A stretch of DNA of 64,000 nt, from positions 1-64,000 of the forward strand of contig NZ_DATIND010000124.1 in NCBI RefSeq assembly GCF_035474595.1. Reading direction: 5' to 3'. Below are positions 21,432 to 35,390 of this stretch, piece after piece. How positions within the stretch are numbered: the stretch's first letter is position 1; the number at the start of each line of letters is the position of its first letter. The notes under the pieces were generated by a model. That model made no database searches. It saw only the letters and a program-made list of their open reading frames with translations, and was not told the origin of the DNA. This DNA is from Longimicrobium sp. (GTDB lineage: Bacteria > Gemmatimonadota > Gemmatimonadetes > Longimicrobiales > Longimicrobiaceae). A program made the translations under genes and the position numbers.

Positions 21432-22568
21432 ATGAGCCTTGCCCTCGCCGGGACGCCCGACTGCGCCACGACCGCGCGCGCGGATGCCGCCGCCCGGCCG
21501 CGCTTCGCGGTGCGCTGGGCCGAGGTGGGGCTGATGTTCGCGGCGTGGACGCTGGTGGGCGCGTTCGGGCTCACGCAGAGCTACCTGGCCGCGCTCTTCG
21601 GCGGGCAGCCGTTCCCCGGGTTGCGCTACGTGGCGTGGAACCTGGAGAGCGTGTGGCTGTGGGCGGCGTTCACCCCGCCGATGTTCTGGCTGGCCGCGCG
21701 CTTCCCGCTGGAGCGCGGCATCCGCGTGCGAAACCTGGGGCTGCACGCGGCGTTCGCGCTCGGCTTCGCGGTGCTGGACCTGGGCGGCGACGTGGTGTTC
21801 GGGCCGCTGCTGGGCGGCTACCGCGGCACGCTGGCCGAGCGCTTCTTCGCCAAGCTGTTCATCAACGTGTTCAGCTACGCCGCGGTGGTCGGCATCGCCC
21901 ACGCGGTTCAGTACAACCGCGCGCTGGCCGAGAAGCGCGAGCGCGAGGCGGCGCTGGAGAGCGAGCTGCTGAAGGCGCGGCTGCAGGCGCTGGAGATGCA
22001 GATCCATCCCCACTTCCTGTTCAACACCCTGCACGCCGTCGCCTCGCTCATCCGCGTGAAGGAGGACCAGGCGGCGATCCGGATGCTCGTGGGATTGAGC
22101 GACCTGCTGCGCATCGCGCTGCGCAACCGCGACGCGCAGGAGGTGCCACTGCGCGAGGAGCTGGACTTCGCGCGGCGCTACCTGGAGGTGGAGGGGATCC
22201 GCTTCGAGGACCGGCTGCGCGTGGTGATCGACGTGGCCGCGGATGCGCCGCTGGACGCGCTGGTGCCCAACCTGATCTTGCAGCCGCTGGTGGAGAACGC
22301 CATCCGCCACGGCGTTGAGGCGCGCGCCGCCGCCGGCCTGGTGCACATGGAGGTGACGCACGCCGGCGGGATGCTGCGCCTGCGCGTGACCGACGACGGC
22401 CCGGGCCCGAAGGCGAACGGCCGCCGCGGCGTGGGCCTGGCCAACACGCGCGAGCGGCTGGCGCACCTGTACGGCGCCCGCCACCGCTTCGTGCTGGCGG
22501 CGGGGGAAGATGGCGGCGCCGTGGCGCTGGTCGAGATTCCGCTGCGCCTCGCGACCGCCGATGCCTGA
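21432..22568 (+). CDS. LytS/YehU-type sensor histidine kinase
   Basis: A 378-residue membrane kinase: four hydrophobic helices in the first 160 residues, a coiled-coil linker (EKREREAALESELLKARLQ), the His_kinase domain with phospho-acceptor QIHPHFLFNTLHA (His near residue 194), then an HATPase with VENAIRHGV (N box), DDGPGP (G1) and GVGLANTRERL (G2). It phosphorylates the LytTR regulator that follows and overlaps by eight bases. ATG 21432 is preferred to 21378, whose extra residues look untranslated. Confidence 0.92.
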   Translation: MSLALAGTPDCATTARADAAARPRFAVRWAEVGLMFAAWTLVGAFGLTQSYLAALFGGQPFPGLRYVAWNLESVWLWAAFTPPMFWLAARFPLERGIRVRNLGLHAAFALGFAVLDLGGDVVFGPLLGGYRGTLAERFFAKLFINVFSYAAVVGIAHAVQYNRALAEKREREAALESELLKARLQALEMQIHPHFLFNTLHAVASLIRVKEDQAAIRMLVGLSDLLRIALRNRDAQEVPLREELDFARRYLEVEGIRFEDRLRVVIDVAADAPLDALVPNLILQPLVENAIRHGVEARAAAGLVHMEVTHAGGMLRLRVTDDGPGPKANGRRGVGLANTRERLAHLYGARHRFVLAAGEDGGAVALVEIPLRLATADA

Positions 22569-29927: not shown

Positions 29928-30001
29928 GGCGGCCGTAGCTCAACCGGCGAGAGTACCGGGCCGTGAATCCGGGGGAGTGGGTTCGAGTCCCACCGGCCGC
30001 C
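29928..30001 (+). tRNA. tRNA-His (GUG), with C33
   Basis: Cloverleaf: G-1 at 29928 opposite discriminator C73 at 30001 (a histidine identity feature), acceptor GCGGCCG/CGGCCGC, U8-A9, D stem GCUC/GAGU, anticodon stem CCGGG/UCCGG, loop CCGUGAA with anticodon GUG, T stem GUGGG/CCCAC with loop UUCGAGU. CCA is not encoded. Position 33 is C instead of the near-universal U, which is unusual. Its 3' half is close to that of the tRNA-like RNA that follows 20 bases later. Confidence 0.85.
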
Positions 30002-30020
30002 CCTCGTCCGCGCGTGGTGT

Positions 30021-30151
30021 GGAAGCCCGTAGCTCAGCGGCCAGAGCGCCGGAGGTTTCCTCCCCGCCTCCTCGTCCGCCGCAACGCGGGCCGACGTGGG
30101 AGGATCATCGCTAATCCGGGGGCCGCGGGTTCGAGTCCCGCCGGGCTTCCA
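30021..30151 (+). ncRNA. yrlA: Bacterial Y RNA (YrlA-type), tRNA-like, copy 1
   Basis: Acceptor AAGCCCG/CGGGCUU, extended by GG/CC, U-A, D stem GCUC/GAGC, anticodon stem CCGGA/UCCGG (30049-30053, 30115-30119) and T arm GCGGG-UUCGAGU-CCCGC are intact, so the outside folds as a tRNA. In place of a seven-base anticodon loop there is a 61-base module (30054-30114) with its own helices: CCUCC pairing with GGAGG, and CGUCCG opposite CCGACG around a CCGC/GCGG hairpin. GUCCG...GAC recalls the Ro-binding stem of Y RNAs. The Ro60 orthologue rsr lies 870 bases downstream. Bacterial Y RNAs with tRNA-mimicking domains are known beside rsr; assignment here is by structure and context. Confidence 0.75.
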
Positions 30152-30185
30152 CCCCCGCGCGGATCAGGCTTTGGGGTTCGGCCGG

Positions 30186-30246
30186 GCGAATGAATTCGCG
30201 GCAACAACAGCACAAAGTCCCTGCGGGACTGCGGCCGCGGCATCGT
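30186..30246 (+). repeat. Two-hairpin element R5
   Basis: Stem 1 GCGAAT/ATTCGC (loop GA), core GGCAACAACAGCACAA, stem 2 AGTCCC/GGGACT (loop TGC), tail GCGGCCGCGGCATCG. It lies between the two Y RNA genes. Confidence 0.88.
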
Positions 30247-30369
30247 GGCGACAGGCTGGATCAGGTCGGGACGGGCTCTCACGGAGGGCGCAGAAGGCAC
30301 GGAGGAGAACCATCAATCCTCCGATTCCAGTGCTCGTCGTGACGGAGAAAGAAGATCGGGACGGAGGAT

Positions 30370-30494
30370 GGGACTGTAGCTCAGCGGTAGAGCGCTTCCT
30401 CGCCAACCACTTGTCCGGCCGCGATGCCGGGCCGACGGACGAGGGTTATCGAATCTTACTCGAGAGGCCGCGGGTTCGAATCCCGCCAGTTCCA
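30370..30494 (+). ncRNA. yrlA: Bacterial Y RNA (YrlA-type), tRNA-like, copy 2
   Basis: Acceptor GGGACUG/CAGUUCC with one G-U pair, U-A, D stem GCUC/GAGC with loop AGCGGUA, T arm GCGGG-UUCGAAU-CCCGC, discriminator A. The anticodon arm is replaced by a module aligned with copy 1: CCUCG pairs with CGAGG (CCUCC/GGAGG in copy 1, a paired change), and GUCCG (30413-30417) faces CCGAC (30432-30436) around a CCGGC/GCCGG hairpin. The remaining anticodon-stem pairing is weak (CUUCC has no clear partner), so copy 2 departs further from tRNA. It lies 520 bases before rsr. Confidence 0.72.
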
Positions 30495-31015: not shown

Positions 31016-32656
31016 ATGATGGACTTCACGAAGCACTTCGCGACTCGCCTGCGGGCGCTCGCGACGCCGCAGGGCGCGCCGATCCCCGGGACCGCGCAGG
31101 TGCCCAACTCGGCGGGCGGGTTCGCGTGGGCGCTCGACAAGTGGGCGCGGCTGGACCGCTTCCTGGTGCTGGGGAGCGACGGCGGGACCTTCTACGTGGG
31201 CGAGCGCGAGCTCACCGTGGAGAACGCCCGCTCGGTGGCCGAGTGCATCGGCGAGGATGGCGCCCGCGTGGTGCGGCGCGCCGTGGAGGTGAGCGAGGCC
31301 GGGCGCGCGCCGAAGAACGACCCCGCGCTGTTCGTGCTGGCCATGGCGGCCGGGATGGGCGACGAGGCCACGCGCGCCGCCGCGCTCCAGGCGCTGCCGC
31401 GGGTGGCGCGCACGGGAACGCACCTGCTGCACTGGCTGCGCTACGTGCAGGCGTTCCGCGGGTGGGGGCGCGGCGTGCGGCGCGCGGTGGGGCGCTGGTA
31501 CACGGCCCGGCCGCCCCGTGATCTGGCCTACCAGCTCCTGAAGTACCCGCAGCGCGACGGCTGGAGCCACCGCGACGCGCTCCGGCTGGCCCACCCGCGG
31601 CCGGAGAGCGACGAGCAGCGGGCCCTGCTCCGCCGAGCCGTGACCGGCGAGGTGGGCGAGGCGCCGGACACCGAGGCCGTGCGGCTGGTGCGCGCGGTGG
31701 CCGAGCTGCACGCGGATGCGGAGATGGCGCCGGCCCGCGCGGCGGCGCTGGTGCGCGAGCACCGGCTCACCCGCGAGATGCTGCCCTCGCAGCTGCTCAC
31801 CCACCCGGCGGTGTGGGAGGCGCTCCTGGAGGAGATGCCGCTCACCGCGCTGGTGCGGAACCTGGCCACGCTCACCCGGGTGGGCGTGCTGGCGCCGGGG
31901 AGCGACGCGGCCGCGCGGGTGGCGGCGCGCATCGCCGACGCGGGCGCGCTGAAGCGGGCGCGCGTGCACCCGGTGCAGGTGCTGGCCGCGCTGCGCACCT
32001 ACGCGGCCGGGCGCGGGGTGCGCGGCCAGCACTCGTGGCAGCCGGTGGCCCGGGTGGTGGACGCGCTGGATGCGGCCTTCTACCTGGCCTTCGGGGCGGT
32101 GGAGCCGAGCGGGCGGCGCACGATGCTGGCGCTGGACGTGTCGGGGTCGATGATGGCCCCCGTGCACGGGCTGGACTTCGTGAGCTGCCGCGAGGCGGCG
32201 GCGGCCATGGCGCTGGTGACGGCGGCCACCGAGCCGCGGCACTTCTTCACCGCCTTCACCGCGGGGACGCGCCGCAGCATGCACGCGGGGTTCCCCACGG
32301 GGCTAAGCACGCTGGCCGTCTCGCCGCGCGAGCGGCTGGACGACGTGGTGGCGAAGACCAGCGGGCTGCCGTTCGGCGGGACGGACTGCGCGCTGCCGAT
32401 GCTGGAGGCGCGCACCCGCAAGTGGCCGGTGGACCTGTTCGTGGTCTACACCGACAACGAGACCTGGGCCGGGGACGTCCACCCCGCGCAGGCCCTGCGG
32501 CAGTACCGCGAGGCCACCGGGATCGCCGCGAAGCTGGTGGTCGTGGCGATGGCGTCGAACGGGTTCACCATCGCGGACCCGGACGACGCGGGGATGCTGG
32601 ACGTGGCCGGGTTCGACGCGGCCACGCCGGCGCTGATCGCCGATTTCGCGCGGTAG
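31016..32656 (+). CDS. rsr: Ro60 orthologue, TROVE domain RNA-binding protein
   Basis: A 546-residue protein of the Ro60/Telomerase/Vault (TROVE) family. The helical ring (about 20-365) has the GGFAWALDKWARLDRFLVLG opening and ARVHPVQVLAALRTYA near its end; the C-terminal vWA-like domain (about 366-546) keeps MIDAS residues DVSGSM (374-379) and a VVYTDNETWAG strand. Ro60 rings bind Y RNAs on the outside and single-stranded ends of misfolded RNAs in the cavity; bacterial forms act in rRNA and structured-RNA decay under stress. AAGGAGG stands eight bases before ATG 31016. Two Y RNA genes lie upstream and rtcB downstream. Confidence 0.95.
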   Translation: MMDFTKHFATRLRALATPQGAPIPGTAQVPNSAGGFAWALDKWARLDRFLVLGSDGGTFYVGERELTVENARSVAECIGEDGARVVRRAVEVSEAGRAPKNDPALFVLAMAAGMGDEATRAAALQALPRVARTGTHLLHWLRYVQAFRGWGRGVRRAVGRWYTARPPRDLAYQLLKYPQRDGWSHRDALRLAHPRPESDEQRALLRRAVTGEVGEAPDTEAVRLVRAVAELHADAEMAPARAAALVREHRLTREMLPSQLLTHPAVWEALLEEMPLTALVRNLATLTRVGVLAPGSDAAARVAARIADAGALKRARVHPVQVLAALRTYAAGRGVRGQHSWQPVARVVDALDAAFYLAFGAVEPSGRRTMLALDVSGSMMAPVHGLDFVSCREAAAAMALVTAATEPRHFFTAFTAGTRRSMHAGFPTGLSTLAVSPRERLDDVVAKTSGLPFGGTDCALPMLEARTRKWPVDLFVVYTDNETWAGDVHPAQALRQYREATGIAAKLVVVAMASNGFTIADPDDAGMLDVAGFDAATPALIADFAR

Positions 32657-34115: not shown

Positions 34116-35390
34116 ATGAAGATCTTCGGAGAGCACCAGGAGAACACGCTGCGCCAGTTCCACGACGTGGCGAGCCGCGCGGAGCGTGCCGCGCTTATGG
34201 CGGACGGGCACGTTGGCTTCACGATGCCTATCGGTGGCGTCACGGCGTATCGTGATCACGTGTCGGTCGTGGGCGTTGGGTTCGACGTCGGGTGCGGCAA
34301 CTGCGCCATTCGCACAGACTTACGTGTCCAAGACCTCACCAAGGACCTGGCGTTGGACGAGATCCGGCGCAACCCGCACCGGTTGATCAGCGACCGGCGC
34401 GCGAACCGCGTGGCCGACGAGGTGGCGAACACCATCTCGTTCGGGCTGGGGCGGAGGAACGATGCCGACGATGCGCCGGTGGACGATCCGCTGTTCAACG
34501 ACCCGGCGTGGTACGCCATCCCCAACACCGGCGGCTACCGCGACACGCTGCGCGACAAGGCGCGGCGCCAGCTGGGCACCGTGGGGAGCGGCAACCACTA
34601 CGTGGACGTGTTCGCCGACGAGAACGGCGCGGTGTGGGTGGGCGTGCACTTCGGCAGCCGCGGCTTCGGGCACACGGTGGCGAGCGACTTCCTGTCGCTG
34701 TCGCAGGGCGGCGCCTGGGGCGAGCGCGGCAGGGAGAAGGAGGTGCTGCTGGACGTACGCCAGCCCGTGGGGCACGACTACTGGCACCTGATGGAACTGG
34801 CCGGGCGCTACGCCTACGCCGGGCGCGAGTGGGTGGCGCGCAAGGTGGTGGAGCTGCTGGGCGGCACCGAGGTGGAGCTGGTGCACAACCACCACAACTT
34901 CGCCTGGCGCGAGATGCACGTGGGGCCCGAGGGCGAGCCGGTGGAGTACGTGGTGGTCCGCAAGGGCGCCACGCCCGCGTTCCCCGGGCAGCTGGGCTTC
35001 ATCGGCGGGTCGATGGGCGACGACGCGGTGATCGTGCGCGGCGCCACCGCCGACCCGGGGAGCGAGGTGGCTCGCACGCAGCGGGAGGCGCTGTTCAGCA
35101 CCGTGCACGGCGCCGGCCGGGTGATGAGCCGCACCGAGGCCGCCGGCAAGCGCACCCGCCGCGGGATGGTGAAGAGCCACGGCAAGATCCAGCCGCGGAT
35201 GGTGGAGGAGTGGCTGGGGAAGAAGGGGGTGATCCTGCGCGGCGGCGGGCTGGACGAGGCGCCGCAGGTGTACCGGCGCCTGAACAGGGTGCTGGAGGCG
35301 CAGGGGCCCACCATCGAGGTGCTGCACGTGCTGCAGCCGCTGGTGGTGGTCATGGCCGGCGCGGGGGAGATCGATCCGTACAAGGATTGA
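34116..35390 (+). CDS. rtcB: RNA-splicing ligase RtcB
   Basis: A 424-residue RtcB. It joins 2',3'-cyclic phosphate or 3'-phosphate RNA ends to 5'-OH ends using GTP and Mn2+. Metal and guanylate residues are visible: DVGCGN (Cys60), GSGNH (His161), HFGSRG (His178), HNHH near 257-260 and FSTVHGAGR with His331, the guanylylated histidine. No archease or RtcA gene is adjacent. The first 50 codons are somewhat less GC-rich, like the preceding gene. Known bacterial operons join rsr, Y RNAs and rtcB; this locus has the same content. Confidence 0.95.
   Translation: MKIFGEHQENTLRQFHDVASRAERAALMADGHVGFTMPIGGVTAYRDHVSVVGVGFDVGCGNCAIRTDLRVQDLTKDLALDEIRRNPHRLISDRRANRVADEVANTISFGLGRRNDADDAPVDDPLFNDPAWYAIPNTGGYRDTLRDKARRQLGTVGSGNHYVDVFADENGAVWVGVHFGSRGFGHTVASDFLSLSQGGAWGERGREKEVLLDVRQPVGHDYWHLMELAGRYAYAGREWVARKVVELLGGTEVELVHNHHNFAWREMHVGPEGEPVEYVVVRKGATPAFPGQLGFIGGSMGDDAVIVRGATADPGSEVARTQREALFSTVHGAGRVMSRTEAAGKRTRRGMVKSHGKIQPRMVEEWLGKKGVILRGGGLDEAPQVYRRLNRVLEAQGPTIEVLHVLQPLVVVMAGAGEIDPYKD

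What the first reader, a model, noticed from the sequence alone, without database searches (positions are those of the whole stretch)
30021..30494. Two RNAs with tRNA acceptor, D and T arms but a Y-type module in place of the anticodon loop
Both RNAs keep tRNA ends and arms, yet the anticodon loop is replaced by about 60 bases. The two inserts align with each other and share GUCCG...CCGAC; the helix CCUCC/GGAGG in one is CCUCG/CGAGG in the other, a compensated change. The inserts are too short for group I introns. The best explanation is YrlA-type Y RNAs for Rsr, with copy 2 further from tRNA than copy 1.
Basis: partly seen in the sequence, partly recalled or inferred. Interest (0 to 1): 0.9.

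Follow-up and report, generated by a model that had tools for sequence, protein, structure and literature searches.

The report
tRNAs carrying a Ro60-binding Y-RNA arm
Next to the gene for the RNA-quality-control protein Ro60, this bacterium has two small RNA genes that are built like tRNAs but carry a Ro60-binding "Y RNA" hairpin in the anticodon arm; the same design recurs in many bacterial phyla and is the un-rearranged counterpart of the known bacterial Y RNAs, in which the tRNA part is circularly permuted.

Summary
Two tRNA-like RNAs (30021-30151, 30370-30494) lie between tRNA-His and a ro60/rsr gene (31019-32656); rtcB lies further downstream. Each has a tRNA acceptor, D arm and T arm plus a ~60-nt module containing the Ro60-binding Y-RNA helix (GUCC/GGGC with a bulged C) and a GG-N-UUAUC-like motif. 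A covariance model separates such RNAs (94-125 bits) from ordinary tRNAs (71 bits or less) in 61 related genomes: all 12 genomes with Ro60 have them, against 2 of 49 without. Fifty-four homologues from about nine phyla show strong pair covariation.

They are not YrlA by Rfam: YrlA matches only across neighbouring copies. YrlA sequences rotated at their acceptor loop align end to end with the new profile (26 of 27 score better), so the new RNAs are the non-permuted isomer of YrlA. Copy 1 has the module inside the anticodon loop; copy 2 has it before a retained anticodon-like hairpin. New variant of a known kind. Binding, processing and function are untested; the main primary papers on bacterial Y RNAs could not be read.

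The parts
29929..30003 (+). tRNA-His (GTG), 17 nt upstream of copy 1 and probably in the same transcript
   Evidence: ARAGORN, Rfam tRNA 59.2 bits
30021..30151 (+). Y-tRNA copy 1: 9-bp acceptor stem (30021-30029/30142-30150), D arm 30032-30047, T arm 30125-30141, discriminator-like A 30151
   Evidence: R1 124.2 bits; alignment A6; tRNA-type processing is inferred from spacing only
30049..30053 (+). copy 1 anticodon-stem 5' strand CCGGA, pairs 5/5 with TCCGG at 30115-30119 across the module (insertion inside the anticodon loop)
   Evidence: 5/5 cross-pairing in 16 of 54 homologues versus 1.6 expected by shuffling
30058..30104 (+). copy 1 Y module: outer stem 30058-30063/30099-30104; Ro60-site helix 30072-30077/30088-30094 with bulged C 30092
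30370..30494 (+). Y-tRNA copy 2: 7-bp acceptor (30370-30376/30487-30493), A73 at 30494, D arm 30379-30393, T arm 30470-30486
   Evidence: Rfam tRNA 50.8 bits, R1 93.9 bits
30397..30450 (+). copy 2 Y module: outer stem 30397-30402/30440-30445; Ro60-site helix 30411-30416/30429-30435 with bulged C 30433; UUAUC 30446-30450
30449..30463 (+). copy 2 retained anticodon-like hairpin UCGA-AUCUUAC-UCGA (7-nt loop, U33)
   Evidence: 7-nt loop peak with U33 in 14 of 14 homologues of this mode
31019..32656 (+). ro60/rsr: TROVE domain + Ro60 vWA domain
   Evidence: Pfam 5.8e-43 and 5.4e-61; 2nvo Rsr 8.8e-122
34116..35390 (+). rtcB RNA ligase (context; near some Ro60 loci, not shown to be part of the system)
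   Evidence: Pfam RtcB 6.2e-60; rtcB found in 16 of 92 Ro60 loci as fetched

Best explanation
Each RNA is a Ro60-binding Y RNA built as a collinear (non-permuted) tRNA with a Y-RNA hairpin in its anticodon arm. SHOWN by computation: the tRNA arms and the Y stem are conserved and covarying; the Y stem carries the Ro60-site signature; in the genomes surveyed the RNAs occur almost only where ro60 is, close to it and on its strand; they are circular-permutation isomers of YrlA. INFERRED: they are transcribed with tRNA-His and matured by tRNA enzymes (RNase P at the 5' end, tRNA 3' processing and CCA addition), stay unspliced, do not decode, bind Ro60 through the Y hairpin, and present a tRNA-shaped body to a partner (PNPase, the precedent for known Y RNAs, or tRNA-handling enzymes), so directing Ro60 to structured or damaged RNA. 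The confidence is for the first part (Ro60 Y RNA of non-permuted topology); for the maturation route I would say 0.6 and for PNPase as partner 0.4.
For: Ro60 next door is a true Rsr orthologue; the His equivalent to H187, whose change to Ser abolishes Y RNA binding (PMC11277228), is conserved in the alignment. Co-occurrence: 12 of 12 TROVE-positive relatives carry the RNA against 2 of 49 negatives (Fisher p 5e-11); 11 of 17 against 2 of 378 in the phylum sample (p 1e-15). The one well-assembled exception, G122, still has a ~36-codon remnant of ro60 downstream. Covariation: 31 pairs, 24 with changes on both sides, 276 compensated cells against 77.6 +/- 7.9 shuffled; Y stem alone 74 against 27 +/- 4. 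Ro60-site signature: bulged C in 49 of 54, the following G in 54 of 54; the vertebrate site is a helix with one bulged C, and UUAUC is a conserved motif of vertebrate Y RNAs and sbRNAs (PMC4726728). YrlA rotated at its acceptor loop scores 49.6 against 28.2 bits native, better in 26 of 27. Tight tandem spacing (17 nt after tRNA-His, about 11 nt between two hybrids in L058) implies processing from a common transcript.
Against: No RNA-seq, northern or binding data. No partner shown for the tRNA-like body. Copy 1 has a 9-bp acceptor stem, which may not suit RNase P or the CCA enzyme. In the module-only rotation test the gain is modest (10.3 against 4.8 bits, 19 of 27), so much of the whole-RNA signal is tRNA homology. 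About a third of the 93 Ro60 loci typed carry no recognised hybrid or YrlA RNA, partly from cut contigs and a strict motif search. The 54 homologues were found with a model of this type, so the alignment leans towards it; the genomes compared are related, so the p-values overstate the strength.
Confidence: 0.85

Rival explanations
1. Intron-containing tRNAs: the module is an intervening sequence removed by an unknown endonuclease and joined by the nearby RtcB.
For: Insert lies at or next to the anticodon loop; rtcB is in the neighbourhood; copy 2 would give an anticodon hairpin on excision.
Against: The insert has the Ro60-site stem and follows ro60, not rtcB (rtcB found in only 16 of 92 Ro60 loci). 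It occurs at different points of the tRNA. The anticodons left behind differ between homologues and do not follow the tRNA body. The draft genome has ordinary tRNAs for 35 anticodons. No bacterial tRNA-splicing endonuclease is known (general knowledge).
Confidence: 0.05
2. Ordinary members of YrlA, missed by a narrow Rfam model.
For: Same modules, same Ro60 partner; YrlA matches appear in the arrays at 35-40 bits.
Against: Those matches run from the middle of one copy to the middle of the next, whereas in real YrlA loci RF02553 matches within one RNA. Free acceptor ends and a closed Y stem are the reverse of YrlA.
Confidence: 0.05
3. The array is transcribed as one and cut in the Y loops, so that permuted YrlA-like RNAs spanning two neighbouring genes are the mature products.
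For: The YrlA model matches across copies in tandem arrays.
Against: Acceptor strands of one copy pair with each other in nearly every homologue (96% of cells); many loci have a single copy, for example L148, L168, L155.
Confidence: 0.03
4. cis-regulatory leader of ro60 (a tRNA-mimic 5' UTR element).
For: Upstream of ro60 in Gemmatimonadota.
Against: In several Myxococcota the RNAs lie downstream of ro60 (L168, L154, L110, L117); distances vary from tens of bases to over 2 kb.
Confidence: 0.02

Closest known systems
YrlA (Y RNA-like A, Rfam RF02553; structure 6CU1)
   Same: Ro60-site Y stem, D and T arms, tRNA-like acceptor, located next to ro60/rsr
   Different: YrlA is circularly permuted with respect to tRNA (shown structurally in PMC11472068): its ends lie in the Y stem and its acceptor is a closed hairpin. 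Here the acceptor has the free ends and the Y stem is closed by a short loop. RF02553 does not match single copies.
Vertebrate Y RNAs and nematode sbRNAs
   Same: Helix with a single bulged C as Ro60 site; UUAUC motif (PMC4726728)
   Different: No tRNA body; ends at the Ro60 helix; strand order permuted relative to the RNAs here
Canonical tRNA (RF00005)
   Same: Acceptor, D and T arms, T-loop and D-loop consensus; CCA not encoded, as in 49 of 51 other tRNAs of this draft
   Different: ~60-nt Y module in the anticodon arm; no coherent anticodon
tmRNA
   Same: tRNA-like body with other RNA in place of the anticodon arm (general knowledge)
   Different: Far too short for a tag reading frame and pseudoknots; gene partner is Ro60; only low-scoring tmRNA matches to tRNA-like ends

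Membership tests
Ro60-associated Y RNAs | Gene next to ro60/rsr | tested here: met
Ro60-associated Y RNAs | Stem with the Ro60-site signature (helix with one bulged C) | tested here: met
   bulged C in 49 of 54; helix 93% paired
Ro60-associated Y RNAs | Physical binding to Ro60 | not testable with these tools
   needs gel shift or co-precipitation
YrlA (RF02553) | Match to the family model above its gathering score within one RNA | tested here: not met
   none at gathering; only junction-spanning or partial matches below cut-off. Caveat: clear YrlA elsewhere also score below the 69-bit cut-off
YrlA (RF02553) | 5' and 3' ends pair in the Y stem, acceptor closed by a loop (circularly permuted tRNA) | tested here: not met
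   acceptor strands pair with each other, Y stem locally closed
YrlA (RF02553) | Homologous after rotation (not a defining feature, but the test of kinship) | tested here: met
   26 of 27 YrlA score better rotated; module alone 19 of 27
tRNA | Acceptor, D and T arms | tested here: met
tRNA | Decoding-competent anticodon arm | tested here: not met
   copy 1: loop interrupted; copy 2: hairpin kept but displaced by the module, anticodons incoherent among homologues
tRNA | Aminoacylation | not testable with these tools
   needs acid-gel northern or charging assay
tRNA with group I intron | Group I core, Rfam match | tested here: not met
   insert ~60 nt; no intron family in Rfam scans

The most novel reading that the evidence does not exclude
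The Y stem is a portable Ro60-binding cassette that entered tRNA genes at several points (anticodon loop, before the anticodon stem, D loop). Tandem hybrid genes then gave rise to YrlA by circular permutation, so bacterial Y RNAs descend from tRNAs through forms still present here. The retained anticodon-like hairpin (U33 in 14 of 14) could act as bait or sensor for anticodon nucleases beside Ro60 and RtcB.
Probability: 0.3. Interest if true: 0.88.

Novelty: new variant of a known kind. Interest (0 to 1): 0.77.

Why it matters
Known bacterial Y RNAs mimic tRNA only as a permuted molecule, with no obvious route from one to the other. A widespread collinear form with free tRNA ends gives a concrete intermediate, suggests that tRNA maturation enzymes make some Y RNAs, and makes the origin of Y RNAs testable. 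It also shows that tRNA annotation may hide Ro60 RNAs: one copy was called a plain tRNA by Rfam and both were missed by ARAGORN. Picosynechococcus sp. PCC 7002, a laboratory strain, carries candidates just upstream of its plasmid TROVE gene, so the idea can be tested at the bench.

Tried and rejected
Single-sequence folding: inconclusive (z about -1.8); the minimum-energy fold of copy 1 is not the full tRNA-like one. Rfam YrlA on single copies: no match. tmRNA, riboswitch and other weak Rfam matches: chance or tRNA-arm matches. A third hybrid between copy 2 and ro60 in the window: none above 7 bits. Promoter and terminator scan: nothing (the consensus may not suit this genome). The first T-arm/acceptor script gave many false hybrids from neighbouring tRNAs; replaced by typing anchored on the Y core. 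Papers: the primary papers and reviews on bacterial Y RNAs that I tried by DOI or PMC id (Chen 2013, Chen 2014, Wang 2018, Sim and Wolin 2018, Sim 2020, Burroughs and Aravind 2016) are not held, or the DOI I tried was not found, so whether they mention non-permuted forms could not be checked; no held paper found in the searches describes them.

Full report
OBSERVATION. The window is part of a 6.57-Mb draft genome (G000); its relatives include Gemmatimonadota records. The stretch 30021-30494 holds two RNAs with tRNA acceptor, D arm and T arm. Copy 2 is an Rfam tRNA hit of 50.8 bits with a long insertion. ARAGORN calls only the upstream tRNA-His here. The claimed compensated change (CCUCC/GGAGG versus CCUCG/CGAGG) is real. 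Folding energy alone says little.

SURROUNDINGS. Downstream, 31019-32656 encodes a Ro60 orthologue: TROVE plus the Ro60 vWA domain, closest solved structure D. radiodurans Rsr, 2nvo, E 8.8e-122. An rtcB gene follows at 34116-35390. tRNA-His ends 17 nt before copy 1, so copy 1 very likely comes from a shared transcript (inference).

HOMOLOGUES. In close relatives the same RNAs sit upstream of ro60, often two or three in a row after tRNA-His. A covariance model from 15 of them scores them at 94-125 bits, while ordinary tRNAs in 61 whole genomes reach at most 71. All 12 TROVE-positive genomes of that set have the RNA; of 49 TROVE-negative genomes only two do, both incomplete drafts with the RNA near a contig edge. 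Fisher p is 5e-11. In 395 genomes of the phylum, 11 of 17 TROVE-positive against 2 of 378 negative genomes have it at the strict threshold (p 1e-15); a twelfth, G263, has one at 81.5 bits. One of the two exceptions, G122, is well assembled; downstream of its RNA lie the first ~36 codons of ro60 and no more of it. Related genomes are not independent, so these p-values overstate the strength.

WIDER RANGE. A scan of genome contigs with a Ro60 alignment gave 80 loci. The model finds hybrid RNAs at 60-96 bits in Chloroflexota, Myxococcota (Sorangium, Polyangium), Desulfonema, Armatimonadota, Abditibacteriota, a Thiotrichaceae MAG, a cyanobacterial MAG and actinobacterial MAGs. MAG phylum labels are as deposited. 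Below about 70 bits the model score alone does not separate hybrids from tRNAs; there I relied on the ~120-145-nt length, acceptor pairing and the Y core. In several Myxococcota the RNA lies downstream of ro60, which argues against a leader element. Picosynechococcus PCC 7002 plasmid pAQ7 has three candidates within about 460 nt upstream of its TROVE gene.

STRUCTURE. On 54 hybrids (A6) a 31-pair structure is 94% paired; 24 pairs have changes on both sides; 276 compensated cells against 77.6 +/- 7.9 in shuffles, and slid controls collapse. The Y stem alone gives 74 against 27 +/- 4, though its number of double-change pairs is not exceptional (62 of 500 shuffles reach it) because the Ro60 helix is nearly invariant. 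The signature GGGC-C-G opposite U(U/C)G(C/U)CC has a bulged C in 49 of 54; a GG-N-UUAUC-like motif follows. A review describes the vertebrate Ro60 site as a helix with one bulged C and reports a UUAUC motif in vertebrate Y RNAs and sbRNAs (PMC4726728).

TWO WAYS OF INSERTION. In some hybrids (copy 1) the anticodon stem closes across the module: 5/5 pairs in 16 of 54 against 1.6 expected. In others (copy 2) the module precedes an intact hairpin: among 26 with poor cross-pairing, 14 have a stem closing exactly a 7-nt loop (0 to 2 for other sizes), all 14 with U33. A Desulfonema RNA (L129:7161-7283) appears to have the module in the D loop (by eye).

RELATION TO YrlA. Published work shows that bacterial Y RNA (6CU1) superposes on tRNA by circular permutation (PMC11472068). 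In arrays of hybrids the Rfam YrlA model matches from the middle of one copy to the middle of the next, whereas in true YrlA loci it matches within one RNA. Twenty-seven YrlA sequences rotated at the acceptor loop score 49.6 bits on average against the hybrid profile, 28.2 unrotated; 26 of 27 improve. With the tRNA part removed the gain is smaller: 10.3 against 4.8, 19 of 27. On a tree of 93 Ro60 proteins the labels hybrid and YrlA need 5 changes against about 19.6 in shuffles, so topology follows Ro60 lineage; deep branches are too weak to say which form came first.

MECHANISM. Most likely these RNAs are made and trimmed like tRNAs, kept unspliced, and bound by Ro60 through the Y hairpin, with the tRNA-like body facing a partner. 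PNPase is the precedent for Y RNA (PMC8394870), and YrlA has been suggested as a competitive inhibitor of an anticodon nuclease (PMC7790460). Splicing is unlikely: anticodons left behind are incoherent, insertion points differ, and the draft has ordinary tRNAs for 35 anticodons (Phe and Tyr tRNAs were not seen in this draft, but neither copy carries their anticodon). Only 2 of 51 tRNAs encode CCA, so the lack of CCA here is normal.

NOVELTY. New variant of a known kind: the non-permuted topological isomer of a known RNA, in a known protein context. The caveat is that the principal primary papers on bacterial Y RNAs could not be read.

Noticed in passing
L060:6607-6713(-), L058:6122-6224, L059:355-456, L052:7660-7749, L194 near 8064(-): A second class of Y RNAs beside hybrids in Gemmatimonadota: acceptor-like ends, Y module and T arm but no D arm.
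   Followed up: partly
L057:5109-5222(-): Hybrid-like RNA whose D arm is replaced by a GAAA-capped hairpin.
   Followed up: no
L129:7161-7283: Desulfonema magnum has several Y-tRNAs; one seems to carry the Y module in the D loop with a shrunken anticodon arm.
   Followed up: partly
L214:4787-4913: Third Y-tRNA candidate of Picosynechococcus PCC 7002 pAQ7 looks non-circularly rearranged: one strand of the outer Y stem lies 3' of the rest.
   Followed up: no
L193:7517-8290: Genome G122 keeps a hybrid RNA before a truncated ro60 (about 36 codons remain).
   Followed up: yes
L128, L126, L158 (YrlA loci): Some permuted YrlA also keep an anticodon-like hairpin right after the UUAUC-type motif (for example UCGA-CUUCUAA-UCGG in L128), not visible in the RF02553 consensus.
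   Followed up: partly
L116, L152, L153, L154, L155, L117, L108: Many Ro60 genes lie inside arrays of about 8 to 20 tRNA genes.
   Followed up: no
window 21651-21748: ARAGORN tRNA-Gln lies inside a histidine kinase ORF and has no Rfam support; false positive.
   Followed up: yes
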